Source: Bacteroides sp. OF04-15BH
Lineage (GTDB): Bacteria; Bacteroidota; Bacteroidia; Bacteroidales; Bacteroidaceae
Length of the DNA: 64,000 bases
NCBI RefSeq assembly: GCF_003477995.1
Contig: NZ_QUEM01000020.1
Coordinates: 1-64,000, forward strand
Direction of reading: 5' to 3'
Below are positions 1,278-60,334 of this stretch, in pieces. The number at the start of each line of letters is the position of its first letter. The stretch's first letter is position 1. Position numbers and translations under genes: made by a program. The notes under the pieces are model-generated. The model was not told the origin of the DNA. It made no database searches and saw only the letters and a program-made list of their open reading frames with translations.

Positions 1278-4200
1278 ATGAAAAAGAAACGGAATGTAGT
1301 GGAGTGGGCCATGCATTATCGCCAGATTATCATTCTGGTGACCTGCTGTCTCATTGCCTTTGGAATCTATAGTCTGCCGCAGATGCAGAAGAATGAATTT
1401 CCGAGCTTTACGATCCGTCAGGGTATGGTCATTGCCGTGGCACCCGGAAATACGGTGGAAGAGATGACCGAGCAGGTGACCAAGCCGTTGGAGGATTATA
1501 TCTTTTCGTATAAGGAAGTCAAGAAAGAGAAGACTTTTTCTACCACCCGCGACGGGATGGTCTTTATTCAGGTGGAGCTGAATGATGAGCTGAACGACAA
1601 GGATGCTTTCTGGAGCAAGTTCAAGCATGGCATTGCCGGTTTCAAGGCGCAGCTGCCTTCGAACGTGCTGGCAGTGCAGGTGATGGATGATTTTGGAGAC
1701 ACCTCGGCACTGCTCGTTACGATGGAGAGCCGCGACAAGACCTATCGGGAACTTTCCGACTATATGGACGACCTGCAGGAGCGTTTGCGTAAAATCAACA
1801 GTGTGGGCCGTATGACGGTCAGCGGCGAGCGCAACGAACAGATTTCCATTTATCTGGATCCGGCCCGTCTGGCGCAGTACGGACTGAATGAACAGACCAT
1901 AGGCGCTTCTCTCTTTGCCAAAGGATTTGTTACGACCGGTGGGCGCCTTCAGACACCGGAGTATATCTTGCCGGTGCATGTGGCCCGCACCTATAATACG
2001 ATTTACGACATCGAACAGCAGATTGTGTATGCTGATCCCACCGGACATACGGTGCGTCTGAAGGATGTGGCCCGTGTGGTCCGCGAGTATCCTCATGTCG
2101 ACAGTTATATTAAGAACAACGGTACCAAATGTATTCTGCTCAGCGTGGAAATGAAGCAGGGCAAGAATATTGTGCAGATGGGTGAGGAAGTGAATCGGGT
2201 GATTCAGGATTTCGAGAAGGAACTGCCGTCGGATGTCAAGATCAGCCGTATCACCGATCAGGCACAGGTGGTGGGCGACAGTGTGAACTCCTTCCTGCGT
2301 GAGCTGGTGATTGCCATTGTTGCCGTGGTGATTGTGGTCATGCTGCTCTTGCCGTTGCGGGTAGCTCTGGTGGCTGCATCCACTATTCCCATCACCATCT
2401 TTATCTCTTTGGGACTGTTTTATGCCCTGGGCATAGAACTGAATACGGTGACTCTGGCCGCTCTGATTGTGACTTTAGGTATGATTGTGGACAACTCCAT
2501 AGTCATCATTGACAGTTATCTGGAGCAGATCGGTGAGGGCGTGTCCCGATGGCATGCTTCTGTGGTCAGTGCCACACACTTCTTCCAGTCAATCCTTTCG
2601 GCTACGCTGGCCATCAGTATAACCTTCTTCCCCTTCCTGATGGTCATGAAGGGCATGTTCCATGATTTTCTGGTCAGTTTCCCGTGGGCCATCACGCTCA
2701 TTCTGACCGTTTCATTACTGGTGGCTACATTGCTTGTGCCTTTCATGCAATTCTGGTTCATCCGCAAGCCGGTGGCTCGTAAGGAAAAGGGCTTTTCCAT
2801 TATGGATTGGCTTCAGAAAGGATATAACAAGGTGCTGGATGGCTGTTTTGCCCATCCTTACGTGACTCTTTCCGTGGGTGTCCTTTCTGTTGTGGCCGGA
2901 GCTTTCCTGTTGGGCAAGGTGCCGCAGAAACTGATGCCGGCGGCAGACCGGAACCAGTTTGCCGTAGAGATTTATCTGCCGGTCGGTACGGCTGTGGAGC
3001 AGACACAGGCTGTGGCCGACAGCATGGAGCATATTCTGCGCCGTGATGAGCGCGTCATGTCAGTGACTTCGTTTATCGGTTGCTCATCGCCCCGTTTCCA
3101 TACCGCCTATGCCCCGCAGCTGGGCGGCACGAATTATGCCCAGCTGATTGTCAATACGGCCGGAAACCAGGAAACGGTTGCTTTGCTCGATCACTATGCC
3201 CCTCTGTATACAAATGCCTTCCCTGAGGCACGGGTACGTTTCAAGCAGATCAGTTTCAGCCAGTCGGTCTATCCGTTGGAGCTGCGCTTCAGCGGAAGCA
3301 ATCTGGATTCCTTGCGGTGGACGGCCGATCAGTGCCTTGCTCTTTTGCGCAGCATGCCCGAGGTACAGTTGGCACAAACCAATTTCAGTGAACCGCAGGC
3401 AACTGTTGGAGTGACCTTGAAAGAAGATGAGGCTTCGCGGATGGGCATCAATAATCTGATGCTGGAAACCACTCTTGCCATGCGCTATGGCGACGGAATG
3501 CCGGTGACTCAGGTCTGGGACGGCGACCGCAAGACGGCCGTGACGCTCAAAAGCGAGCATGCCGATAGCTGTACGGTGGCAGACCTGAATGACGAACTGA
3601 TTCCGGTCATCGGAGGTCCGGCCGTTCCTCTGCGCCAGATTGCCATCCTGACCCCCCAAATGCAGAACGGACAGATTGTGCGTCGTAACGGTGTTTATAC
3701 CATCACCGTGATGTCGGATGTGCAGCGCGGAGTTAATGTGGCCGAGTTCACCAAGAAGGTGATGAGTAAGGTCGATGAACTGCATTTGCCGCAGGGTGTG
3801 GAACTGAACTACGGCGGTGATCTGGAACAGGATCAGGAGAATATGCCGTTGATCATGTCGGCCCTGGCCATTGCTGCCTTTATGATCTTCTTTATTCTGT
3901 TAGCCCATTTCAAGAAGATCAGCATCGCGTTCCTGATCTTTTGCAGCATGGTGCTCTGTCTGTTTGGTACGGCAGCCGGTGTGCTGATTCAAGGTGTGGA
4001 ATTTGGTATGACCAGCACCTTGGGTATCATCAGTCTGATGGGTATCATTGTGCGTAACGGTATCATCATGATAGACTATGCCGAGGAGCTCCGTGCCACT
4101 GAAGGAATGCATGTACGTGATGCCATCTATCATTCGGCCCGTCGCCGTATGCGACCGATCTTCCTGACATCGGCTGCCGCCTCTATGGGTGTGATTCCGA

Positions 4201-21888: not shown

Positions 21889-21921
21889 AAAAAAAGGCTT
21901 GTCGCAAGTACGACAAGCCTT
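21889..21921 (-). terminator. Intrinsic terminator in the trp leader (attenuator)
   Basis: AAGGCTTGTCG-TACTTG-CGACAAGCCTT forms an 11-bp perfect stem with a 6-nt loop, followed by seven U on the minus strand. It lies between the leader peptide stop and trpB (about 36 bp before the ATG). A terminator upstream of the first gene of its own operon is the mark of attenuation. Confidence 0.9.
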
Positions 21922-21969
21922 TTCAGTATCTTTTTATTTCAAGTATGAACACCAAGATATACAAGACTA

Positions 21970-22000
21970 GCTCCTCACGACCTTTTGAGTTCTGAGTAGC
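21970..22000 (-). promoter_or_regulatory. Leader hairpin 1:2 downstream of the Trp codons
   Basis: GCTACTCA (22000-21993, codons 12-14 of the leader peptide) can pair with TGAGGAGC (21977-21970, overlapping the peptide stop), with one mismatch. A ribosome stalled on the Trp codons would cover the first arm. I did not find a convincing antiterminator by eye. Confidence 0.5.
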
Positions 22001-22034
22001 GCCACCACCAATATGTATTCTTGTTCATGTTCAT
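21975..22034 (-). CDS. trpL: trp operon leader peptide with three consecutive Trp codons
   Basis: This 20-codon frame reads MNMNKNTYWWWRYSELKRS and stops with TGA. Three TGG codons in a row occupy 22010-22002. It begins about 36 nt after a consensus promoter. The stop overlaps a hairpin arm, and 53 nt after the stop comes a terminator stem ahead of trpB. Tryptophan is rare in proteins, so WWW in a tiny ORF at the head of trpBEGDCFA is strong evidence for ribosome-mediated attenuation: low charged tRNA-Trp stalls the ribosome and lets transcription continue. An ATG at 22028 in the same frame is an alternative start. Confidence 0.9.
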   Translation of the reverse strand: MNMNKNTYWWWRYSELKRS

Positions 22035-22070
22035 GATTTCTCTTTTTGCTTTTTTGTTTTTGTTACGTTG

Positions 22071-45716: not shown

Positions 45717-48700
45717 ATGAATAAGAAGATGTTGTTCGGTTTGGCCCTGGCCTGCCAGACCAACTTGTGGGCTGCCGGCGAGCAGCCCGGATGGCTTCGC
45801 TGGTGTTCCATTTCACCGGATGGAAAGCAGATTGCCTTTACTTATTGCGGAGACATCTACACGGTGCCGGCTGCGGGCGGTGAAGCACGCCAGCTCACAG
45901 CCAATACGGCTTATGATTACGCTCCGGTGTGGAGCCCCGACAGCAAGCACATTGCTTTTGCCAGTGCGCGCGAGGGTAGTATGGATGTGTATGTGTCTTC
46001 GCTCGAAGGGGGAGCGCCGAAGCGCATCACCACAAATTCGGGAAATGAAATCCCGGTGGCTTTTCTGGATAATGAGCAGGTGCTCTTCTCGGCCTGGGGC
46101 ATGCCTTCGGTAGACAATACGCAATATCCGAGCGGTATCTACACACATATCTATAAGGTAAGTGTGCAGGGCGGCCGTCCGCAGCTTTACTCCGAATGGA
46201 CCATGCGTAATCCCAACGTAGGCCGTCAGGGTGTGCTTTTTGAGGATGTCAAGGGCTATGAGGACTATTGGCGCAAGCACCAGACTTCGAGCATCGCCAG
46301 CGACGTGTGGCTCTATGACGGAAAGAACTATCGCCAGCTTACCAGCTTCAAGGGCGAGAACCGGAATCCGCTCTGGGCGGCCGACGGCAGCCAGTTCTAT
46401 TATCTGAGCGAGGAGGGCGGCTCTTTCAACATTTTCAAGAAAGGTCTTTCCGTGCAGGACAATCCGGTGCAGCTCACACACTATAAGGACTGTCCGGTGC
46501 GTTTCCTGTCGGCTTCGGACAACGATTTGTTGTGCTATAGTTACGATGGCGAAATCTACACCTTGCAGCCGGGCGGAGAACCGAAGAAGGTGACGGTGCG
46601 CATCACGCGCGACGACATGCAGCGCGATGTGATCCGCCAGTTGCGTTCATCCGGAGCCAGTGAGATTTCCGTATCGCCAAAAGGCAATGAGATCGCTTTT
46701 GTGATGAGTGGCGATGTGTATGTCACTTCAATTGACTATAAGACTACCAAGCAGATTACCGATACGCCACAGAAGGAACGCACCGTGGACTTCGCGCCCG
46801 ACGGTCGTTCGTTGGTGTACGCTTCCGAGCGCAACGGTCTGTGGCAGGTGTTCCAGGCCAGTCTGGTCAAGAAGGATGAGAAGAACTTTACTTATGCCAC
46901 CGAGATCAAGGAAGAACAACTTACTGACGGCAAATACACAGCCTTCCAGCCGGTGTATAATCCGAAGGGAGGCGAGGTGGCTTTCCTGAAGAACCGCACC
47001 GAAATCTGTGTGCTCGATGTGAAGTCGCGCAAGGTGCGCACGGTGATGGACGGCAAATATCAGTATTCTTATACCGACGGTGATCAGGACTTTACCTGGA
47101 GCCCGGACGGCAAATGGCTGCTCACGGAGTATATCGGTGTGGGTGGCTGGAACAATAAGGACATCGCGCTTGTCAGAGCCGACGGTAGCGGGGTGATCCA
47201 CAATCTGACAAACAGCGGTTACAGCGAGGGTAGTCCGAAGTGGGTGCTCGACGGTAAGGCCATGATTTTCCAGAGCGACCGTTCGGGTTATCGCAGCCAC
47301 GGTTCCTGGGGCTCACAGCGTGACGAATACATTATGTTCTTCGATGCGGATGCTTACGACCGCTTTATGATGAACAAGGAGGAACTGGCACTTCTGGCCG
47401 AGCGTGAGAAGGAAGAGAAAGAGGCCGAGGAGAAGAAGGTCAAGGAAATGTCCGACAAGGAGCGCAAGAAATACGAGGCCAACAAGGAAAAGGAGAAGAA
47501 CAAGGATCTGGTCTTCGACCTGGAACATCTGGAGGAACGCACGCTGCGCCTCACTCCTTATTCTACCAATCTGGGCGATGCCGTGCTGAGCAAGGACGGA
47601 AGCAAACTGTATTATGTGGCTCCATACGAGGGCGGTGCCGGACTTTGGGTGCAGCACATCAAGGAGTATCGCAATGAATTGAAAATGCGCGGCATGGATT
47701 GGGCCAATCTGGATGCCGATCCGGAAGTGAAAAATGCCTATATGGCCAGCGGAGGCATGATCAAGAAACTGGATATCGAAAACGGACGCATCAGTAATGT
47801 GCCGTTTGAGGCTTTCTATACTTCGCGTCCGGACGAGGAGCGTGCTTACCAGTTTGAGCACATCTGGAAACAGACCAAAGACAAACTCTACGATCCGAAC
47901 ATGAACGGTGCTGACTGGGATGCCATCTATAAGACGTATTCCAAGTATCTGCCTTACATCAACAACAACTATGACTTTGCCGAAATGGCGAGCGAGATGT
48001 TGGGCGAACTGAACGTGTCGCACACAGGATGCCGTTTCGGTGGTTACGGCGGCGCGTTGCCTACAGCCTCATTGGGTGTGTTCTATGATGAGACTTATCA
48101 GGGCGACGGACTGAAGGTGAAGGAAGTGCTCGAGGGCAGTCCGGTTGAACTGGCTGCTCATCCGATCAAGGCCGGTGCCGTGATTCTGGCTATTGACGGA
48201 GTGAAAATCAAGGCTGGAATGGATTATTATCCGTTGCTCGAAGGCAAGGTGGGCCGTTACACACGCCTCACGGTAAAAGACGGCGGTAAAGAATTCCATG
48301 TGACAGTGAAGCCGATCTCTTCCGGTCGTGAAAGCGATTTGCTGTATGACCGCTGGGTAAAACGCAATCAGCGCATGGTAGCGCAGTTGTCCGACAACCG
48401 TGTGGCTTACGTGCACATCAAGGAGATGAACGCAGCTTGTTTCCAGAAACTTTATAAGGAGTTGATGAGCGACGAGAACCGTAACAAGGATGCCGTGGTG
48501 GTAGACACCCGTCATAACGGAGGTGGCTGGCTGCACGACGATATCTGTATCCTGCTGAGTGGTAAGCGCACGCTGCAGTACAAACCGCGCGGTCAGTTCA
48601 TCGGTAACGACCCGTTCGACCGTTGGTTCAAGCCTTCGTGCATGCTCGTTTGTGAGGACAACTATTCCAATGCTCACGGAACTCCTTGGTATTATAAGGA

Positions 48701-48959
48701 GCAGGGTATCGGTAAACTGGTTGGTGCTCCGGTGCCCGGAACCATGACAGCCGTATGGTGGGAGTATCTCGACGGCGGACTGGTGTTCGGTATTCCTCAG
48801 GTTACTGCCGTGGATATGCGTGGCGGTGTTCTGGAGAACCAGCAGCTTGATCCCGACATCGAGGTGTATAACAAACCTGAAGATGTGCTTGCCGGCAAGG
48901 ATGCTCAGCTGGAAGCCGCCGTTCAGGAAATGCTGAAGGAAATCAAGCAGAACAAGTAA
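45717..48959 (+). CDS. Tricorn-like S41 serine protease
   Basis: The 1080-residue protein has a signal peptide (MLFGLALACQTNLWAAG). A beta-propeller region follows at about 25-530, with WD/PD40-type repeats (WSPDSKHIAFASAREG, FAPDGRSLVYASERNG, WSPDGKWLLTEY). Next is a highly charged Lys/Glu coil (about 558-605), then the S41 part. It includes a PDZ-like segment (LEGSPVELAAHPIKAGAVIL), the tricorn His H769 in LNVSHTGCRFGG, the RHNGGGW glycine loop and the nucleophile S984 in NYSNAHGTP. Likely a periplasmic peptidase that degrades peptides to short products. It is monocistronic with its own terminator. Confidence 0.92.
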   Translation: MNKKMLFGLALACQTNLWAAGEQPGWLRWCSISPDGKQIAFTYCGDIYTVPAAGGEARQLTANTAYDYAPVWSPDSKHIAFASAREGSMDVYVSSLEGGAPKRITTNSGNEIPVAFLDNEQVLFSAWGMPSVDNTQYPSGIYTHIYKVSVQGGRPQLYSEWTMRNPNVGRQGVLFEDVKGYEDYWRKHQTSSIASDVWLYDGKNYRQLTSFKGENRNPLWAADGSQFYYLSEEGGSFNIFKKGLSVQDNPVQLTHYKDCPVRFLSASDNDLLCYSYDGEIYTLQPGGEPKKVTVRITRDDMQRDVIRQLRSSGASEISVSPKGNEIAFVMSGDVYVTSIDYKTTKQITDTPQKERTVDFAPDGRSLVYASERNGLWQVFQASLVKKDEKNFTYATEIKEEQLTDGKYTAFQPVYNPKGGEVAFLKNRTEICVLDVKSRKVRTVMDGKYQYSYTDGDQDFTWSPDGKWLLTEYIGVGGWNNKDIALVRADGSGVIHNLTNSGYSEGSPKWVLDGKAMIFQSDRSGYRSHGSWGSQRDEYIMFFDADAYDRFMMNKEELALLAEREKEEKEAEEKKVKEMSDKERKKYEANKEKEKNKDLVFDLEHLEERTLRLTPYSTNLGDAVLSKDGSKLYYVAPYEGGAGLWVQHIKEYRNELKMRGMDWANLDADPEVKNAYMASGGMIKKLDIENGRISNVPFEAFYTSRPDEERAYQFEHIWKQTKDKLYDPNMNGADWDAIYKTYSKYLPYINNNYDFAEMASEMLGELNVSHTGCRFGGYGGALPTASLGVFYDETYQGDGLKVKEVLEGSPVELAAHPIKAGAVILAIDGVKIKAGMDYYPLLEGKVGRYTRLTVKDGGKEFHVTVKPISSGRESDLLYDRWVKRNQRMVAQLSDNRVAYVHIKEMNAACFQKLYKELMSDENRNKDAVVVDTRHNGGGWLHDDICILLSGKRTLQYKPRGQFIGNDPFDRWFKPSCMLVCEDNYSNAHGTPWYYKEQGIGKLVGAPVPGTMTAVWWEYLDGGLVFGIPQVTAVDMRGGVLENQQLDPDIEVYNKPEDVLAGKDAQLEAAVQEMLKEIKQNK

Positions 48960-49222: not shown

Positions 49223-49230
49223 TATATTTG
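49223..49230 (+). promoter_or_regulatory. -7 box upstream of fasciclin cassette 1
   Basis: TATATTTG, 28 nt before the first ATG of the cassette, matches TAnnTTTG. The -33 region has no exact TTTG. Confidence 0.5.
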
Positions 49231-49258: not shown

Positions 49259-49729
49259 ATGAAAAAAATATTATTGAGTATTGTAGCATGTTTGGTCTTT
49301 CCAAATATCTACGCAGATGATCTTACTGCATTTCTGAAAATGCGCGACGGATCGTCTTTGCAAATGCAGCTGGAGGCTTCTTCCGAGGTAAAGTTGCAGA
49401 AGAATCTATTGAAGGTATATAATCATTGGTTACAAAAAACAGAGTTTATTTTCTTGATAGATGATGTTGCTTCCCTGTCTTTTAGCCAGCCGTCTACGGA
49501 TATCAAGAATGTTTCTTCAGAGACTCTTTGTTATCGTATGGACAATGGAATCTTGTATATCAGTGGAGTAACGGGGAATGCGCCTGTTCAGGTATATGAT
49601 GCTTCCGGTGTACTTCTAAAGGATGTTGCTGTTCGGGGTTCCTCATGTAGCATATCGTTGATGGATTTCTCTCAAGGATTGTTATTAGTAAAAGTAAATA
49701 ATCAAACCATTAAAATTCTGAAGAGATGA
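49259..49729 (+). CDS. Cassette 1 protein A: small secreted protein with sorting-domain-like C-terminus
   Basis: The 156-residue protein has a signal peptide (ILLSIVACLVFPNIYA). A beta-rich domain follows (DDLTAFLKMRDGSSLQMQLE ... DDVASLSF), the kind of segment that often precedes functional domains in Bacteroidales surface proteins. The C-terminus (VQVYDASGVLLKDV ... GLLLVKVNNQTIKILKR) closely resembles a T9SS type A sorting domain. No catalytic domain lies between the two. The start at 49259 is chosen because the signal peptide begins there; an in-frame ATG at 49133 falls in promoter sequence. It overlaps protein B by 4 nt (ATGA). A diverged copy is at 53369. Confidence 0.8.
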   Translation: MKKILLSIVACLVFPNIYADDLTAFLKMRDGSSLQMQLEASSEVKLQKNLLKVYNHWLQKTEFIFLIDDVASLSFSQPSTDIKNVSSETLCYRMDNGILYISGVTGNAPVQVYDASGVLLKDVAVRGSSCSISLMDFSQGLLLVKVNNQTIKILKR

Positions 49730-51156
49730 AAAAGATTTTACCGATTATATTGATGGCGTCCAGCATCGGCGCGTGGGCTCAGACACCGATTCAGGTACAG
49801 ACCAAGACCAAAATGTATGATTTGTCGGATGCTTATAGCATTACATTTGAGAACGGAGGACAGACTCAAGTTATCAAGACAAAAAGTCAGGGAGAAATTC
49901 GTGTACCTTTGGCCGATTTGAAACAAATTTATTTTAATGACACCTTGGTCACTCTGACAGATCAGATTAAGAATCTGGAGGGATGCGAGATCATGAAAAC
50001 CATTTTGTTTGAGGAAAACTCTGTCCTGGCTCCATACATGTTTGCTCCCTATCTTAATGCTTCTAATATTACACGTGTTTTCATTCCTACAGACAAAGCC
50101 TTTGAGGCTATTCCAGTCGTGAATCCAAAGACTCCGAACCTGCCTTGCGTTTTGTCCGTAACTTTGGATAAGGCTGCTTCTTTTCCTTTTCGTGCTCAAC
50201 TGAAAAGATATGATCCAGAAACGGGTGAGGTCGGTGGATTTTTAGGAATAACCCCTTCCTCTGCAGAGTTGGGAGCCTTTTTAAAACGTTTGGTTATGAA
50301 TCAGTTTGCTTTCGGAAATAGAAAGGAACTGAAAACCGTGACTGGTTCAATGATTGAAGAATCGGAAGAAGGTTACAAGGGAACCTATGAATTGGAAGCT
50401 ACAAGAAAAGGAAATAAATATCAGACTAATGTCAATGCGGTGCAAGTCTTGAATGGTTCCGACAATAGAAAATGTATCATTACAGATGCTGTGTTGAGTG
50501 AAACGTTGTGCAGCACGCATGAGGCATTACAGGAACTTTCTCCAAAGTTTTTGCAGTTGCTGGAGGATATTCCTTTGGATTTGATGGATCAATTAGGATT
50601 TTTTGATCCTGATTATGAATATTGGGAGAGAACACCGTATTTTTCTTTTTTCGAGACTTTGAGTTCCGGAAAGAAGAAGTTCCGTTGGAATTCTACGGCT
50701 GTAAACTATACCATATTTGCTCCTACGGATGAGGCTTTGGAGGCAGCTTTCCGTAGTGGTATCTTGCTTTCCTGGGATGAGATCAGGGCGATGGCGGATA
50801 ATCTGATAGATTCTGCCGATTGGGAGATAAAGGGTAAGTATGAAGTGCTCGAAAAGGTTACGGAACTGTTTTTCTTTATCAATCAGCACATCTTGTTTGG
50901 AAATGTAATGACAGATATTCCAGAAAATACAGAATCCAAAATCACAACTTGTCTGTTGACTGGTAATCATACTTCTCAGACAGTTTCTGTTCGGAGAGAT
51001 AAAGGAAATGTCTTTTCGGTATCTACTGCAAAGACCATCCCGAGTTCAATTCGATATGTAAAAGAGGTCGGAGAATCTAATTATCAGCTTTTCTTTTCAG
51101 ACCAGATGCAATCTGGAGTGGTTATGCAGATAGACAAAGCAATAACAAACGAATAA
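49726..51156 (+). CDS. Cassette 1 protein B: two-domain fasciclin-like (FAS1) secreted protein
   Basis: The 476-residue protein has a signal peptide (ILMASSIGAWAQ), then a beta segment resembling part of protein A (LSDAYSITFENGG ... VPLADLKQIYF). Two FAS1-like domains follow: the first at about 85-255 with RVFIPTDKAFEAIP, the second at about 260-470 with YTIFAPTDEALEAA at 327-340. FAS1 domains mediate adhesion and protein binding at cell surfaces. There is no lipobox, transmembrane helix or sorting domain, so anchoring is unexplained. The start overlaps the gene for A, which suggests coupled translation. The second copy is at 53836. Confidence 0.82.
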   Translation: MKKILPIILMASSIGAWAQTPIQVQTKTKMYDLSDAYSITFENGGQTQVIKTKSQGEIRVPLADLKQIYFNDTLVTLTDQIKNLEGCEIMKTILFEENSVLAPYMFAPYLNASNITRVFIPTDKAFEAIPVVNPKTPNLPCVLSVTLDKAASFPFRAQLKRYDPETGEVGGFLGITPSSAELGAFLKRLVMNQFAFGNRKELKTVTGSMIEESEEGYKGTYELEATRKGNKYQTNVNAVQVLNGSDNRKCIITDAVLSETLCSTHEALQELSPKFLQLLEDIPLDLMDQLGFFDPDYEYWERTPYFSFFETLSSGKKKFRWNSTAVNYTIFAPTDEALEAAFRSGILLSWDEIRAMADNLIDSADWEIKGKYEVLEKVTELFFFINQHILFGNVMTDIPENTESKITTCLLTGNHTSQTVSVRRDKGNVFSVSTAKTIPSSIRYVKEVGESNYQLFFSDQMQSGVVMQIDKAITNE

Positions 51157-51167
51157 ATAAGACGATT

Positions 51168-52676
51168 ATGAATAACATCTATAAAAAAATGGGACTTACC
51201 CTAGTTTGCCTGGCTTGTGGCTTTTCATTAATGGCACAGGAAACTAGTGATGTATCTAAAGATGATGCACTTTTATTACCCGCAGCTCTGGAACAGCAGG
51301 CCGATTTTAAGGTCTTTACAAAACTGTTGAAGGAAACACAATGGGATCAGGTTTTAATGGCAGCAGAGGATGAAGATTTTGTTATGGAATATAATCCACC
51401 TCAGAATCCTACAATGGGTCCCAGTGTAACTCCAGAGTCCCGTCCTTATGCCTTTACTGTTTTTGCAGAACATGATAGTGTTTTTGCTTCAAGAGGTATT
51501 AAGGATGCTGCTACGTTGACGGCTTATTTGCAGGAGCATTATGCAGATAATTCTGTTTTTGAAGGTATGCTGTATAATGATCAGTACACGGATGCGCGTC
51601 ATGTAGTAAACCGTTTTGTTGCTTATCATCTTTTGCCGCAGATTTTAAGACCGGAGCAATTGGTGATTCATTATAATGAGTATGATTTTGATCTTGACGC
51701 CTTTCTGGAAACGGGTATAGCTCATCCTACAATTCCCGTATATGAATATTATACTACGATGGGAGAAGATCGTCGTTTGCTGAAGCTTTATGAAAGTACT
51801 TCTTCTGGCGGTGTTCGCTTGAACCGTATTGTAGAACATAACCCACAAACCTTTATGGAGCAAGAAGTAAAGATTGAGGGCATTCTTGTTTCAGGAGAGC
51901 ATATGCAAAAGGCATCAAACGGAAACATTTATTTCCTGAATAAAATGTTGGTTTATGATGATGATTTTGCATTGAATGGACTTGCAAAAGAAAGACTGCG
52001 TTTTGATTTTACTGCATTGACTCCCGAATTGATGAATCTGGGCTATCGTCGTCTGATGAATAATTCATTCCGGACTCTTTATTTGCCAGTGGACTATATG
52101 GATAATATTAAAGTACTATCCGGAAAACTGTTTTATAATCCAGGATTTAGAGGTGGTTGGAGTGATTATCAAGGAGATGAGTTGAGTCTTCATGCCCAGA
52201 AAGATGGAAGCGATGTACTAATAAAACTTCCACCAGTTTCTGCCGATGGCATGTATCAGGTTCGTATGGGATTTTTTAGTAACCCTTTACGTGGTATTGT
52301 GCAGTATTATTTTGGTACAGAGGATAATATCGCGGCTATAGGTATCCCTATTGATGAACGGGTGGATTTTAATACGGGTTATATTCCCTTTGGTTGGAGT
52401 GATTCTTTTGTTGACTCTGATTTGATTCTTTATCAGGCAAATCTTATGAAGGCTCCTAATGGAATCCAGAATTTTATGGGGGGAGGGGAATCTCTGCGTG
52501 ATTCAAAAACTTCTATCCGGCGTATTATTGGAGTATTTGATATGCGAGTTGGTGAGACATATTATCTTCGAATAAAGACATCTTCTGGTATGAATAGTGA
52601 GGTCTTATTGGATTATCTGGAATTGGTTCCTTCTACGGTATATGATAATCCAGAGGTTTCTGAAGATATTTGGTAA
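51168..52676 (+). CDS. Cassette 1 protein C: fasciclin/DUF5108-like secreted protein
   Basis: The 502-residue protein has a signal peptide (LTLVCLACGFSLMAQ). The N-terminal half is FAS1-like (KVFTKLLKETQWDQVL at about 45-60, AFTVFAEHDSVFASRGIKDA at about 90-110, VVNRFVAYHLLPQ, ASNGNIYFLNKML). The C-terminal domain (about 290-502) is beta-rich and ends LDYLELVPSTVYDNPEVSEDIW, a layout seen in fasciclin proteins annotated DUF5108. Those are often encoded near SusC/SusD pairs, but none is present here. Function is probably surface binding or adhesion. It starts 11 bp after B. Confidence 0.8.
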   Translation: MNNIYKKMGLTLVCLACGFSLMAQETSDVSKDDALLLPAALEQQADFKVFTKLLKETQWDQVLMAAEDEDFVMEYNPPQNPTMGPSVTPESRPYAFTVFAEHDSVFASRGIKDAATLTAYLQEHYADNSVFEGMLYNDQYTDARHVVNRFVAYHLLPQILRPEQLVIHYNEYDFDLDAFLETGIAHPTIPVYEYYTTMGEDRRLLKLYESTSSGGVRLNRIVEHNPQTFMEQEVKIEGILVSGEHMQKASNGNIYFLNKMLVYDDDFALNGLAKERLRFDFTALTPELMNLGYRRLMNNSFRTLYLPVDYMDNIKVLSGKLFYNPGFRGGWSDYQGDELSLHAQKDGSDVLIKLPPVSADGMYQVRMGFFSNPLRGIVQYYFGTEDNIAAIGIPIDERVDFNTGYIPFGWSDSFVDSDLILYQANLMKAPNGIQNFMGGGESLRDSKTSIRRIIGVFDMRVGETYYLRIKTSSGMNSEVLLDYLELVPSTVYDNPEVSEDIW

Positions 52677-52758
52677 TTCTGCAATAAGATTCTTAATAGC
52701 CTAGATGTATGGATTCTGAAGTTCTAAATAAATACATCTGGCGATGATTCTGCATCAA

Positions 52759-52801
52759 CAAAGGCCATACAATGATTTCTTTTAATCGGGTGTGGCCTTT
52801 G
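52759..52801 (+). terminator. Terminator-like hairpin after cassette 1
   Basis: CAAAGGCCATAC and GTGTGGCCTTTG pair over 12 positions (one G-U). The U-run is weak (TTGTTG). Confidence 0.55.
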
Positions 52802-53305
52802 TTGCACAAGTTCTATTAAAAATTCCATTTAAAGATCTTATAAAGTTTTTGAGGTTGCGGTAATGATGAAGCATATAATGAGCGAGATGGTTATTCAATG
52901 AAATATTGATTTGTTTTTTTAATATTCCTGTGATCAAAAGAACATGTTAAATTCATGCTTTATTTTTGCTGTATTTGTATATGTTTTTCCTATGTGCTAG
53001 AATGTTTCTTATTTTAAGTATGATAATTTTGAAGCGCTATTTTGCATGTTTGACTATGAGTGTCATAATTACATATACTGGGAGAGAAATTGTTTGAATT
53101 TATTTAATGTTGTTTTAAAAGTTATATTAACTGTTTTAAGACCTGATAGTAGATTTTTCTTTTGATTATCCGTCGAATACGAAATATAATTTGTTTCTTA
53201 TAGATTTTGTTTTTAGTAAACTCATAGTTTTCTGTTTATTTTTATTTATGATACATTCTTCTACATGCAAAATCTTGTATGTCTCCTGATTTTCTACACT
53301 TGTTT
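52802..53305. other. Very A/T-rich spacer between the two fasciclin cassettes
   Basis: About 500 bp with no plausible gene in any frame. It contains many T-runs, no repeat of the cassette ends that I can see, and no transposase remnant. Confidence 0.5.
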
Positions 53306-53336
53306 TTTGTTTTCGTTTTTATTTTTTTTAGGTTTG
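53306..53336 (+). promoter_or_regulatory. Consensus promoter of fasciclin cassette 2
   Basis: TTTG (53306-53309), 19 nt, TAGGTTTG (53329-53336): both boxes with ideal spacing, 32 nt before the ATG. Cassette 2 can therefore be transcribed on its own. Confidence 0.75.
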
Positions 53337-53368
53337 CATTTGAATAATTGTCTTAATTTTTAACCACA

Positions 53369-53839
53369 ATGAGAAATATAATATTTTGTATAATGGTTTT
53401 GCTTGCTAGTGCAAGCATCCATGCTGATGATCTTACAGCAAATTTGAAGATGCGAGATGGTACGGTTCGTCAATTTATTATGAACTCATCTTCCGAAATT
53501 GAATTGCAAAAATCATTGTTAAAGGTACATGCTCCAGTGAACCCAGAATATGATGTTCTGTTCCTTTTGGAGGATGTTTCCACATTGACCTTTGATTCTT
53601 CTGTGACTGGAATCCAGAATCTTTCTGAGGCTGTTTTAAGTTATCGCTTGGATGGTGATATGCTGACCATAAGCGGTATTACAGACTGCCCCTTTGTGAA
53701 AGTTTACGATCTTTCTGGTGTCCTTTTAAGTTCAGTACGTGTACACGAAGGTTCTTGTATATTGTCTCTGGCTAGCCTTCCTAAGGGTATGCTTTTAATT
53801 AAAGTAAATAGTCAAACCATTAAAATCTTGAAACGATGA
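53369..53839 (+). CDS. Cassette 2 protein A: small secreted protein with sorting-domain-like C-terminus
   Basis: This is a paralogue of the protein at 49259, also 156 residues and alike at roughly half the positions by eye. It has a signal peptide (MVLLASASIHA). DDLTANLKMRDG and the C-terminal FVKVYDLSGVLLSSV ... GMLLIKVNSQTIKILKR are the best conserved parts, and the middle has diverged. The last nine residues (SQTIKILKR against NQTIKILKR) are nearly identical in the two copies, so the C-terminus seems to matter. It overlaps B2 by 4 nt, as in cassette 1. Confidence 0.8.
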   Translation: MRNIIFCIMVLLASASIHADDLTANLKMRDGTVRQFIMNSSSEIELQKSLLKVHAPVNPEYDVLFLLEDVSTLTFDSSVTGIQNLSEAVLSYRLDGDMLTISGITDCPFVKVYDLSGVLLSSVRVHEGSCILSLASLPKGMLLIKVNSQTIKILKR

Positions 53840-55257
53840 AATATATTTTACTTTTCATATCAATGGCGTTTGCTCTAAATGTATGGAGCCAAACTCCGAT
53901 TCAGGTGCAGACACAAACGAAAGAGTATAATTTATCGGATGCATATCGGATTACTTTTGAGGATGATGGATGCACACAGGTGGTTCACACTCGGTCTCAG
54001 GGGGAGATTCGGATTCCTATGGCTGATTTAAAGCAGATTCATTTCAATGATACTGCAATTAGTCTGGCAAATCAGATCATGGCTCTGGAGAATTGTGAAA
54101 TCATGAAAACTATTTTGTTTGATGATATCCCTGGTTTGCCTTCTGAGTTTTTTTGGAGATATCTTAATAGCCCAAATGTAAAGCTGGTGCTTATTCCAAA
54201 TGATGATGCATTTTTGAATATTCCTACAGCTCGTTTGCCTTTGACGTTAGCATCATATGATTTACTTTCTGTATCCTTGGATAAGAATAGTAATTTTCCA
54301 TTGCAGATGAAAAGATACGTGTTTGATCCGAGAACAGGAGAAAAAGGACGAGAAATGATTGGTTCCAGACCTAGTCAAACAGAGATTGCTGGAATTTTGC
54401 AAAGATTGATTGTCAATCAGTTCCTTGTCGGTTCGGATAGTCCGGCTTATACAGTGGCTGGTTCTTTTGTCAATATGGAAAATGACATTTATGAAGGGAC
54501 TTATCGGAAGTGGGCTTTACAGAATGGTTGGGCGAATCTCCCCAAGATTAATGTAATTCAGCAATTTGAAGGATCAGACGGTAAAGTATGCAAGGTTACC
54601 GATGCCTTTGTCTGTGAAACTTGTTTGACGACTTATGATGCCCTAAAAGAAATCGCTCCTGAGTTTTTAAAATTGATGGAAGTACCAACCCAGTTCTTAT
54701 TAGACTGTGGTTACATGGATGCAGCACATGTTGCCGATGTTACTTTCTTTAAAGATATGGAGCAATGGAATAAGTTCTGCTGGACAAGTTCCTGTGTCAG
54801 TTACACGATATTTGCTCCTACGGATGAGGCTATAGAGACCGCTATTAATAATAAGGAGGTTTTTACTTGGGATATGATTAAAGAGTACAAAAATTCTCTC
54901 CAAGGAAATGAAAATGCAGATGCGTTGTTGCGTGAGAAGATTTCTAAGACTCTTGCTTTTGTTAAAAGGCATATATGTTTTGGAAATGTATTGGTAGATA
55001 TTCCTAAAGGAAATACGATGAGAGTTATGTCCTGCAATATACTGTCAACAGGAGTTGCCCAGCAAGTTTCCATTACACGAGATGCTTCCTCTGATGGTTT
55101 TGCTGTTTCTAATGCGAAATCTGTACCTAATTCTATCCGTTGTGTGCGCGAACCGTGGAAGAAGAATACAAGTTATTTTAGAAATCCGTTCATAACTTTG
55201 GATATGGGGACAGGAGTTGTGATGCAAATTAATGAAGCAATTGCAAACGAATATTAA
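53836..55257 (+). CDS. Cassette 2 protein B: two-domain fasciclin-like secreted protein
   Basis: This 473-residue paralogue of the protein at 49726 has the same layout: signal peptide (MAFALNVWSQ), TPIQVQTQTKEYNLSDAYRI, the VADLKQIxF-type strand MADLKQIHFND, then two FAS1-like domains (VLIPNDDAFLNIP and YTIFAPTDEAIETA). The first 100 residues are far better conserved between copies than the first FAS1 domain. That suggests a shared N-terminal partner or export need and different ligands for the FAS1 parts. Confidence 0.82.
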   Translation: MKYILLFISMAFALNVWSQTPIQVQTQTKEYNLSDAYRITFEDDGCTQVVHTRSQGEIRIPMADLKQIHFNDTAISLANQIMALENCEIMKTILFDDIPGLPSEFFWRYLNSPNVKLVLIPNDDAFLNIPTARLPLTLASYDLLSVSLDKNSNFPLQMKRYVFDPRTGEKGREMIGSRPSQTEIAGILQRLIVNQFLVGSDSPAYTVAGSFVNMENDIYEGTYRKWALQNGWANLPKINVIQQFEGSDGKVCKVTDAFVCETCLTTYDALKEIAPEFLKLMEVPTQFLLDCGYMDAAHVADVTFFKDMEQWNKFCWTSSCVSYTIFAPTDEAIETAINNKEVFTWDMIKEYKNSLQGNENADALLREKISKTLAFVKRHICFGNVLVDIPKGNTMRVMSCNILSTGVAQQVSITRDASSDGFAVSNAKSVPNSIRCVREPWKKNTSYFRNPFITLDMGTGVVMQINEAIANEY

Positions 55258-55259
55258 AG

Positions 55260-56786
55260 ATGATAGTTATGAAGAATTTAAATATAAAAATAGGATGCCT
55301 GTTTCTGTTCCTAATCATAGGATTCCCTTGTCAGGGACAGGAAGAAAATAAATTTCCTCAGGGAAAAGACCTGTTATTGCCTGAGTTGATGGAACAAAAA
55401 TCAGAACTGACAGTTTTTACGAAATTACTGCAAGAAACAGGTTGGGACAAAGCTTTGATGCAAAGTAAAGACGAACATTATAAACCAATTCAGACACCAC
55501 CCTCAACCTCTCCTTTAGGGAGCAGTGAACTGAGTTTTATTCCACAGGAAAGACCGTTTGCTTTTACTGTATTTGCGGAGAGTGATCCTGTATTTTCTTC
55601 TTTGGGAATCTCAGATGCTGCAACGCTGACGGCCTATTTACAAGACCATTTAGCTGATAATATGACATATTCTAATTTGTTGTATGATGATCAATACACT
55701 AATGAGAATCATGTCGCCAATAGATTTGTTTCTTATCATTTGTTGCCACAAAAGTTAGGTCCAAACCAGCTGGTATATCACTATAATGAGTTGAATTTTG
55801 ATTTACAAGATTACATTAAAACAGGAATTGCCAAACCTACTGTTCCAGTATATGATTATTATGCAACAATGGGTACTCCTCAACGATTGCTTAAGATTTA
55901 TGAAAGCAAGGAGTCTGAGGGCGTACGTATAAATCGTTTTGTGTCTTTTGATCAACAGGAATATCAGGAAAAAGAGGTGATTTCGGAAGGATTATCCCTG
56001 TCTCAGGAACGCATGTATGCAGCGTCAAATGGTAATGTATATCTTTTGGATGATCTGCTTTTGTATGATGATCAAACGGTTTATAAGGGTTTTGCTCAAG
56101 AGAGAGTACGAGTTGATATTGCTTCTATCTCTCCGGAATTGATGAATCTTGGCTATCGTCGACTTTTGAGTACATCTCCTGCTCGAGCCTTTTATTTAGA
56201 ACCTAATTATCAAGACAAGATAAAGGTTTTTGCGGGTGATTTGTATTATTTGCCGGGATATAACAGTGGTTGGTCTGATTATCAGGGAGATGAGTTACTG
56301 TTGGTTTCAACGAATGGTGCTTTGGATATTTTGATAGAACTACCTCCAGTTAGCCTTGATGGTATTTATCAATTGCGGTTAGGACTTTCTGGAAATCCGT
56401 CTCGTTCAATCGTTCAGTATTATTGGGGGGATGAGGATATCATGCAGCCTGTTGGTTTGCCTATCGATGAGCGTACTTCTTATAATGAAGGATATGAGGC
56501 GTATGGACGGAATGATTCTTCTTTTGTGGATTTGGATCTTATTTTATCACAAGGAGGACACATGAGAGTACCTAATGTTTTTAAAAGTGCTTTTACGTCC
56601 AATATTAGAGATTACTCTCCATTAGGTCGTCGCATTGTGGGCAGTTTTGATATGAAAGCTGATAAAAAGTATTATTTCAGAATAAAGTCTGTTGGAACTT
56701 CCAATGGTCAGCTTTTCCTGGATTATCTGGAGCTGGTTCCTGCAACAGTATTTCAGAATCCTGAAAAAGCGGAGGACATTTGGTGA
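55260..56786 (+). CDS. Cassette 2 protein C: fasciclin/DUF5108-like secreted protein
   Basis: This 508-residue paralogue of the protein at 51168 has a signal peptide (GCLFLFLIIGFPCQGQ). The FAS1-like half includes TVFTKLLQETGWDKAL, FAFTVFAESDPVFSSLGISD and VANRFVSYHLLPQ. The C-terminal beta domain has GWSDYQGDELLLVST and ends LDYLELVPATVFQNPEKAEDIW. An ATG at 55269 is an alternative start that fits the signal peptide equally well. The stop is exactly 4,110 bp from the stop of its paralogue, the same offset as for A. A terminator follows. Confidence 0.8.
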   Translation: MIVMKNLNIKIGCLFLFLIIGFPCQGQEENKFPQGKDLLLPELMEQKSELTVFTKLLQETGWDKALMQSKDEHYKPIQTPPSTSPLGSSELSFIPQERPFAFTVFAESDPVFSSLGISDAATLTAYLQDHLADNMTYSNLLYDDQYTNENHVANRFVSYHLLPQKLGPNQLVYHYNELNFDLQDYIKTGIAKPTVPVYDYYATMGTPQRLLKIYESKESEGVRINRFVSFDQQEYQEKEVISEGLSLSQERMYAASNGNVYLLDDLLLYDDQTVYKGFAQERVRVDIASISPELMNLGYRRLLSTSPARAFYLEPNYQDKIKVFAGDLYYLPGYNSGWSDYQGDELLLVSTNGALDILIELPPVSLDGIYQLRLGLSGNPSRSIVQYYWGDEDIMQPVGLPIDERTSYNEGYEAYGRNDSSFVDLDLILSQGGHMRVPNVFKSAFTSNIRDYSPLGRRIVGSFDMKADKKYYFRIKSVGTSNGQLFLDYLELVPATVFQNPEKAEDIW

Positions 56787-56830: not shown

Positions 56831-56875
56831 AAAAGCCTCATGAGCATAGTTTTATGTTCTCATGAGGCTTTTGTT
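56831..56875. terminator. Terminator between cassette 2 and the thi operon
   Basis: AAAAGCCTCATGAG and CTCATGAGGCTTTT form a 14-bp perfect stem, with T's on the plus strand and A's upstream. It may serve both converging transcripts. Confidence 0.85.
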
Positions 56876-56889
56876 TGCTTATCGGTGAT

Positions 56890-57663
56890 TTATTTCTTCA
56901 GCTTTTCGATAATCATTTCGGCCACCTTCTTACCGCTCATCAGCATACCGCCGAAGATTGGTCCCATACGTGGAGTCCCGGAAACGGCTGAGGCTGCCAT
57001 ACCGCAGACATACAGTCCCGGGTAGATTTCTTTGGTGCCCTTCACCACTTCGTCCTCACCGGCAACAACGTCCAGTGAGCGCTCACCGATTACACCACCG
57101 GTTTCGGTGTTCAGCTTGATGCCGTTCTTGCGGGCCACGGTGCAGCACATTTCGCTGTCGTGTCCGGTACCGTCGATTACGCATTTTGCCAGAATGTTCA
57201 GCGGGTCAACGTGCAGACCTTCGCGCAAAACCGGAGTCCAGTTTACAACCACACCGCTCACCACATCATTCTTGAAGATGACATCTTCTACCGAGTAGCA
57301 GTTGAAGATGGTGGCTCCAGCGTGTACGGCCTTGTAGAGCAGGGCGGCAGTACTCTCAACAGAGTCCATCACATACAGACCGTCCTCAAACGGAGCGTAG
57401 TTGATGTCAAAGTCGCGCACGATATCCATGGCTTCTTCCTGCACCACAATCTGGTTGAACATCATGGCACCGCCCCACATACCTCCACCCGGAGACAGCT
57501 TGCGGTCAAACTGAGCCACCTTCAAACCGGCCTTGGCCAAGTAGTAAGCGGCTACGATGCCTGAAGGGCCGCCACCCACGATGGCTACGTCCAGATTCAG
57601 ATTCTTCTGCATTTTCTCAAAGTAGGTGCTGATAATGCCCTGTGATACTTTCGTTTCGATCAT
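56890..57663 (-). CDS. thi4: Thi4-type thiazole synthase, sulfide-dependent form
   Basis: It makes the ADP-thiazole precursor of thiamine from NAD, glycine and a sulfur source. The 257-residue protein has the dinucleotide fold VAIVGGGPSGIVAAYYLAKAG (at 27-47), PGGGMWGGAMMFN, and RMGPIFGGMLMSG near the end. Yeast Thi4 uses a Cys as a one-time sulfur donor in CCMDPN; here the aligned segment is LHVDPLN with H151, as in archaeal enzymes that use free sulfide catalytically. It is last in the riboswitch-controlled operon, 24 bp after thiC, and takes the place of the usual thiSGHF set. Confidence 0.9.
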   Translation of the reverse strand: MIETKVSQGIISTYFEKMQKNLNLDVAIVGGGPSGIVAAYYLAKAGLKVAQFDRKLSPGGGMWGGAMMFNQIVVQEEAMDIVRDFDINYAPFEDGLYVMDSVESTAALLYKAVHAGATIFNCYSVEDVIFKNDVVSGVVVNWTPVLREGLHVDPLNILAKCVIDGTGHDSEMCCTVARKNGIKLNTETGGVIGERSLDVVAGEDEVVKGTKEIYPGLYVCGMAASAVSGTPRMGPIFGGMLMSGKKVAEMIIEKLKK

Positions 57664-60095: not shown

Positions 60096-60242
60096 AACTA
60101 TATGTTTACGGGTTATACAATTCGTACCGACGAATTCATGTCAAGGGGAGCGCGCCATGCCGATGTCCGGACAGAATGAATCTGCACCTCCGGAGCCCGA
60201 AAAACCATGCCGATAAAGAAAAGGATTGGTTTGTCAAAAAAC

Positions 60243-60317
60243 AATTCCTACGTCGGTATAATCCGCTTCAGGTTCATAGGGTATAATCTCAGCCCGCCAA
60301 GCAAACGGGCACCCCTT
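60243..60317 (-). ncRNA. TPP (thiamine pyrophosphate) riboswitch, THI element
   Basis: On the minus strand the consensus blocks come in order: GGGGTGCCC, GGGCTGAGATTATACCC, TGAACCTGAAGCGGAT, TATACCGACGTAGGAA. These are the pyrimidine- and pyrophosphate-sensing arms of the THI box. It lies about 150 nt upstream of thiE. The following leader has several GC-rich hairpins that could sequester the thiE start, but I cannot see a clear U-tailed terminator. Confidence 0.95.
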
Positions 60318-60334
60318 TGTTTCTTCGTCAGCCA

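What the first reader, a model, noticed from the sequence alone, without database searches (positions are those of the whole stretch)
49259..56786. Tandem duplication of a three-gene secreted fasciclin cassette
Genes A (156 aa), B (473-476 aa) and C (502-508 aa) occur twice in the same order. A and B overlap by 4 nt in both, and the total length is identical (3,418 bp), with both A starts and C stops offset by exactly 4,110 bp. All six products have signal peptides. B and C carry FAS1-like domains, A a sorting-like C-terminus. Such FAS1/DUF5108 proteins usually accompany SusC/SusD, but none is here. The conserved order suggests a surface complex or adhesin whose parts must be made together. 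Two diverged copies could give variant binding specificities. This is the best candidate for an undescribed system in the window.
Basis: partly seen in the sequence, partly recalled or inferred. Interest (0 to 1): 0.75.

Follow-up and report, generated by a model that had tools for sequence, protein, structure and literature searches.

The report
Twin fasciclin surface-protein gene cassettes
A bacterium related to gut Paraprevotella carries two old, strongly diverged copies of a three-gene set that probably builds a binding complex on its surface, without the nutrient transporter that related proteins usually accompany.

Summary
In detail: two A-B-C gene sets lie head to tail at 49259-56786 and A overlaps B by 4 nt in both. 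The copies are only 45-53% identical in protein, so the duplication is old; trees give three paralogous types. Six flanking proteins are 95-100% identical to those of two Paraprevotella relatives (one is 82%), but the cassette proteins only 36-66%: a fixed site with variable content.

B (FAS1 domains) and C (FAS1 plus a jelly roll) are homologues of two lipoproteins of a common SusCD/FAS1 locus (order exact in 36 of 42). SusCD-linked forms have a lipobox (120 of 123); SusCD-free forms do not. SusCD-free operons often carry a protein with a T9SS-like end (12 of 15 rows against 3 of 42), though a T9SS profile supports only the A-type ones. Each of 8 A genes overlaps its neighbour by 4 nt.

Best reading: a SusCD-independent, T9SS-linked surface binding complex. 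Homology and anatomy are shown; export route, complex and ligand are inferred.

The parts
49259..49729 (+). A1, 156 aa: signal peptide (by eye), small N-terminal domain, T9SS type-A-like C-terminal domain
   Evidence: TIGR04183 21.7 bits (cut-off 23), residues 98-155
49726..51156 (+). B1, 476 aa (type I): small N-terminal beta domain, one clear FAS1 domain (about 259-476) and probably another before it
   Evidence: Pfam FAS1 20.2 bits, below cut-off 22
51168..52676 (+). C1, 502 aa (type I): FAS1 domain (34-269) plus jelly roll (273-495)
53369..53839 (+). A2, 156 aa, as A1
   Evidence: TIGR04183 18.4 bits
53836..55257 (+). B2, 473 aa (type II)
55260..56786 (+). C2, 508 aa (type II)
49726..49729 (+). 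4-nt A1/B1 overlap, likely translational coupling
   Evidence: the same overlap with the next gene in 8 of 8 distinct A genes seen
53836..53839 (+). 4-nt A2/B2 overlap
49223..49230 (+). TATATTTG, match to the Bacteroidales -7 promoter motif (motif recalled), 28 nt before the A1 start codon
   Evidence: consensus match only
53329..53336 (+). TAGGTTTG, same motif, 32 nt before the A2 start codon: possible own promoter of copy 2
   Evidence: consensus match only
56831..56872 (.). inverted repeat (14-nt arms) between C2 and the convergent gene at 56890, likely bidirectional terminator

Best explanation
Two paralogous copies of a SusCD-independent surface-binding cassette. A is a small T9SS cargo: exported through Sec, recognised by its C-terminal domain, carried through the T9SS translocon and anchored at the surface. 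B and C share ancestry with the FAS1 lipoproteins that flank SusCD pairs, but have no lipid anchor; they are held at the surface by A or by contact with each other. Together they present FAS1 domains and a CBM-like jelly roll that bind a glycan or glycoprotein. The two copies, and the different types in sister species, give different binding specificities. Shown: gene structure, homology, predicted folds, absence of a lipobox, the 4-nt overlap, the T9SS translocon gene in relatives, divergence at a fixed site. Inferred: export of A by T9SS, surface location, the A-B-C complex, ligand, specificity change.
Confidence: 0.45

Rival explanations
1. B and C are periplasmic or freely secreted proteins; A alone is T9SS cargo and is only co-transcribed with them.
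For: B and C have neither lipobox nor CTD. T9SS cargo normally carries its own C-terminal signal (PMC9251779 and PMC11205867, passages).
Against: A overlaps the next FAS1 gene by 4 nt in 8 of 8 cases. SusCD-linked homologues are lipoproteins of a locus type whose products sit in the outer membrane (established knowledge). FAS1 and CBM-like folds suit surface binding.
Confidence: 0.28
2. The cassette binds a host or diet protein rather than a glycan, in the manner of the T9SS-dependent trypsin-recruiting proteins 00502/00509 of P. clara.
For: FAS1 domains bind proteins as well as carbohydrates (PMC6032426, abstract and passages). T9SS surface proteins of the same genus recruit trypsin (PMC9477747).
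Against: C's second domain resembles carbohydrate-binding modules, though not exclusively. No sequence link to 00502/00509 was tested.
Confidence: 0.2
3. The cassettes are decaying leftovers of a SusCD/FAS1 locus that lost its transporter.
For: B and C are shorter than gene1 and gene4; L001 holds a 202-aa C remnant beside an intact cassette.
Against: All six genes are intact and keep 45-53% protein identity while third codon positions agree at only 41-44%. Relatives of all three types are found. Complete seven-gene loci exist on other contigs of the same assemblies (L004 with L001, L008 with L002).
Confidence: 0.07

Closest known systems
FAS1 lipoproteins of the seven-gene locus gene1-SusC-SusD-gene4-gene5-SusC-SusD of Prevotellaceae/Bacteroidaceae (defined here)
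   Same: B is homologous to gene1 and C to gene4, including a shared C-terminal tail of the form YLELxP...ED.W
   Different: No SusC/SusD, no lipobox, shorter proteins (B 473-476 instead of about 990 aa, C 502-508 instead of about 710 aa), and an added small CTD-like protein A
T9SS type A cargo proteins (TIGR04183)
   Same: A's last ~60 residues match positions 11-71 of the 72-position model
   Different: A is very small, the window copies score below the cut-off, and B and C have no CTD
Trypsin-recruiting T9SS surface proteins 00502/00509 of Paraprevotella clara (PMC9477747, passages)
   Same: Same genus group; T9SS-linked surface function (proposed here for A)
   Different: 00502 is described as Omp28-related with Ig-like domains and its own CTD; relation to A, B or C was not tested
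Tandem FAS1 proteins (TGFBIp, periostin)
   Different: Low identity (11-21% in the FAS1 rows listed); other accessory domains; a shared fold shows no function

Membership tests
FAS1 (PF02469) | Pfam profile match above the gathering score | tested here: not met
   B1 20.2, B2 17.3 against 22; C1 and C2 no match
FAS1 (PF02469) | FAS1 fold | tested here: met
SusCD-linked FAS1 locus | SusC and SusD genes in the operon | tested here: not met
   no SusC/SusD homologue among window ORFs of 80 aa or more at E 1e-5
SusCD-linked FAS1 locus | FAS1 proteins are lipoproteins | tested here: not met
   no N-terminal lipobox in B1, B2, C1, C2 by pattern
SusCD-linked FAS1 locus | homology to gene1 and gene4 | tested here: met
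T9SS type A cargo (protein A) | C-terminal sorting domain TIGR04183 above cut-off 23 | tested here: inconclusive
   window A1 21.7, A2 18.4; relatives L018 28.1, L056 23.0, L002 20.9, L122 19.6, L001 14.6
T9SS type A cargo (protein A) | T9SS machinery in the host | tested here: inconclusive
   SprA/Sov in 10 of 11 genomes, incl. G001 and G002; the window's own genome is not held
T9SS type A cargo (protein A) | loss of secretion in a T9SS mutant | not testable with these tools
   needs mutants
CBM-like module (C-terminal half of C) | jelly-roll fold like CBM4/6/29/35 | tested here: inconclusive
CBM-like module (C-terminal half of C) | carbohydrate binding and conserved binding residues | not tested
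   no binding-site comparison made

The most novel reading that the evidence does not exclude
FAS1/CBM-like surface proteins of Bacteroidales have changed their anchor, perhaps repeatedly: in SusCD loci they are lipoproteins; in SusCD-free cassettes they lost the lipid and are exported and held by a tiny, translationally coupled T9SS adaptor (A) that carries CTD-less partners through the T9SS. The Paraprevotella cassette is a species-variable form, with several diverged types exchanged at one chromosomal site.
Probability: 0.18. Interest if true: 0.78.

Novelty: new variant of a known kind. Interest (0 to 1): 0.5.

Why it matters
It names a testable group of bacterial surface systems: FAS1/CBM-like proteins uncoupled from SusCD transport and apparently tied to T9SS. 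If A carries B and C, T9SS would be shown to export partners that lack their own signal. Strong divergence at a fixed site between close relatives suggests selection for different ligands. Searches for fasciclin with Bacteroides, SusD, polysaccharide utilization, Prevotella and type IX secretion listed five papers in all, seen as listings only, none about such a cassette; the library is open-access PMC without preprints.

Tried and rejected
Recent tandem duplication: rejected, because third codon positions are only 41-44% identical and the copies fall in separate supported clades.

The N-terminal domains of A and B looked alike by eye; profile comparison gave probability 0.7%, so no homology is claimed.

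Identity with the P. clara gene cluster 03048-03053 deleted in PMC9477747: the main text does not describe those genes in the passages found, and only 2 of 18 genomes of the genus have a full-length B (genomes unnamed, so I cannot say which is P. clara). Unsupported.

One origin of all SusCD-free cassettes: on the C tree 4 changes are needed when protein-only rows are left uncounted; one clade is weakly rejected, p-AU 0.027. Groups i+iii p 0.054 and ii+iii p 0.255; the i+ii test did not finish. The groups were named after seeing the tree, so repeated origin is possible, not shown. That tree held 21 of the 45 SusCD-linked C rows, 8 solo rows, 14 of 15 distinct cassette C rows (L033, broken into two ORFs, left out) and 6 database proteins. 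The trees held 36 B rows (32 of 34 hits) and 53 C rows (33 of the 120 listed hits, plus window and loci).

Lipobox: my first pattern was too strict for these bacteria (e.g. 18 of 37 gene1) and was replaced. Rows cut at the locus start or of 300 aa or less were dropped. The three SusCD-linked exceptions (L038 B, L039 C, L073 C) seem to have starts called too far upstream. In the cassette set the called starts of the gene5-like protein of L056 and the B of L014 are doubtful, and the L033 C row is a fragment.

No plasmid match to C; no significant PDB sequence match for B or C. Promoter and terminator scans found no more than shuffles. Structures of A and of any complex were not predicted (both jobs went to B and C).

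Full report
WHAT IS THERE. Two A-B-C gene sets lie on the + strand at 49259-56786, between a gene for a 1,080-aa protein (45717-48959, S41/tricorn-like) and a convergent gene at 56890-57663 (thiazole-synthase-like; names of flanking genes are recalled, not searched). The finding's coordinates are right. Identity between copies: A 49%, B 45%, C 53%; third codon positions 41-44%. The identical length is coincidental, since B, the B-C gap and C all differ. The cassettes are the GC-poorest part of the window in 2-kb steps (genes 37-40% GC, GC3 30-40%, against 53% and 66% in the gene upstream). SusCD loci of Paraprevotella are also GC-poor (L003, L004), so this is no proof of recent transfer.

WHERE RELATIVES ARE. 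C has 595 relatives at E 1e-3 among 7,995 scored, B 34 of 7,996, A 3 of 79, one of them the window's own A2. Long C relatives (about 700 aa) carry an extra N-terminal FAS1 domain. Of 478 genome contigs relatives of C the best 80 were fetched. By gene content these 80 are 42 with SusC/SusD, 10 SusCD-free with both B- and C-type genes, and 28 with C-type genes only. One search examined 88 loci: these 80, the window, and seven stretches taken from genomes (L144-L150), giving 42 SusCD, 15 cassette and 31 solo rows.

THE SUSCD LOCUS. In the 42 SusC-bearing loci the order is gene1-SusC-SusD-gene4-gene5-SusC-SusD exactly in 36; 3 have gene4 twice, 1 a split SusC, and 2 are cut short. Among the downstream same-strand neighbours printed, no recurrent carbohydrate-active gene was recognised by eye (no family search was made on them). 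B is the counterpart of gene1 and C of gene4.

THE SUSCD-FREE FORMS. A-B-C: window twice, L001, L002, L018, L056, L144. L146 is A-C-gene5-like-B. L009, L012, L033, L047 and L056 begin with a gene related to the L056 Lcl_C/Fib_succ_major protein, then gene5-like, (A in L056) B, C (domains searched on L056 only; gene map). L011, L014 and L145 have B, C and a further downstream protein; those of L011 and L014 partly resemble leucine-rich adhesin HupY, far below its cut-off. All eight distinct A genes overlap the next gene by 4 nt.

THE ANCHOR. Lipobox by pattern: 36/37 gene1, 43/45 gene4 and 41/41 gene5 proteins of SusCD loci; cassette B 0/16 and gene5-like 0/7; of cassette C 5/16 were flagged, all at a Cys well past the signal peptide. 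L047 and L147 are one locus, so there are 15 distinct B and C. CTD-like ends by pattern occur in 12 of 15 cassette rows (11 of 14 distinct loci), 3 of 42 SusCD loci, 8 of 31 solo loci and 51 of 889 proteins overall. The three cassette misses are L001 (A present but outside the pattern), L012 (the contig ends inside the next gene) and L033 (such a gene lies further downstream). The pattern was written after seeing examples. By profile, only A-type proteins are supported: six distinct loci (window, L001, L002, L018, L056, L144), two at or above the cut-off; the downstream proteins of L009, L011, L014 and L047 had no TIGR04183 match.

DISTRIBUTION. In 18 genomes of the Paraprevotella group, 13 have a B-profile match but only 2 (G001, G002) over the full profile. 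In 399 genomes of the family, 66 have a B-profile match at 1e-6, and only G001 and G002 over the full profile (at most 4 candidates scored per genome); G255 has a more distant 519-aa B. C-profile matches occur in 266 of 399 genomes; among the listed rows, uncut forms under 600 aa occur in G001, G002, G004, G005, G008 and G320, and two more short ones (G297, G327) appear split or cut by a contig end (at most 3 candidates per genome, list truncated).

HISTORY. Trees split the Paraprevotella cassettes into type I (window copy 1), type II (window copy 2, L002) and type III (L001); support is 100/98 (B) and 100/100 (C) for type I, 93/90 and 98/97 for type II, 100/100 for type III. L001 also has a 202-aa type I C remnant directly after the S41-type gene, so it has probably lost a type I cassette. 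At the same chromosomal site, six flanking proteins of the window and L001/L002 are 95-100% identical (one 82%), but A is 42-60%, B 36-52% and C 49-66% identical. Even type II against type II (copy 2 and L002) is only 52-66%. The site is fixed; its content diverges quickly or is replaced. On the wider C tree cassettes fall in four places (4 changes, protein-only rows uncounted); a single clade is weakly rejected (p-AU 0.027), with pairs at 0.054 and 0.255.

MECHANISM. T9SS moves folded proteins with a C-terminal domain through SprA, and type A cargo is thought to be attached to surface polysaccharide (PMC9251779, PMC11205867: passages). T9SS-dependent surface proteins of P. clara are reported to recruit trypsin (PMC9477747: abstract and passages). 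SprA/Sov is present in 10 of 11 genomes searched; G005 is the exception. The simplest reading is that A replaces the lost lipid anchor: it reaches the surface by T9SS and holds B and C there. Whether B and C cross the outer membrane with A or otherwise is unknown. FAS1 domains bind proteins and carbohydrates (PMC6032426: abstract and passages); the jelly roll of C mildly favours a glycan. Confidence is about 0.85 for homology and domain anatomy and 0.45 for the T9SS-tied surface complex.

NOVELTY. Searches for fasciclin with Bacteroides, SusD, polysaccharide utilization, Prevotella or type IX secretion listed 2, 2, 0, 1 and 0 papers, seen as listings only, none on such a cassette (one search was swamped by 'susceptible'). 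I file it as a new variant of the FAS1 surface proteins found in SusCD loci.

Noticed in passing
L003, L004, L006-L008 and others (36 of 42 SusC-bearing loci): A highly conserved seven-gene locus FAS1-SusC-SusD-FAS1-FAS1-SusC-SusD whose printed neighbours suggest no substrate.
   Followed up: partly
L020, L025, L036, L042, L050, L062 and others (28 of the 80 loci): C-type proteins of about 700 aa standing without SusC/SusD or B in the fetched stretch; 28 of 31 solo C genes counted have a lipobox.
   Followed up: no
L001 7326-7934: 202-aa C-terminal remnant of a type I C gene directly after the S41-type gene, pointing to cassette loss.
   Followed up: yes
L144 5728-8919 (-): C-type protein of 1,063 aa, with an additional weaker gene5 match, in an A-B-C set.
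   Followed up: partly
L056 1997-4537; related first gene in L009, L012, L033, L047: A protein with Lcl_C and Fib_succ_major domains (searched in L056) heads the SusCD-free operon in this group.
   Followed up: no
L011 7498-9690, L014 11564-13900, L145 7496-9547: Proteins with a CTD-like end downstream of B-C; those of L011 and L014 partly resemble leucine-rich adhesin HupY.
   Followed up: no
L033 9747-11299: The C-type gene is broken into two ORFs in this contig.
   Followed up: no
window 60228-60326 (-) and 21912-22057 (-): TPP riboswitch and Bacteroidetes tryptophan leader RNA.
   Followed up: no
window, whole: TANNTTTG occurs 56 times against 37 expected (0 of 100 shuffles as high), consistent with Bacteroidales promoters.
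   Followed up: no
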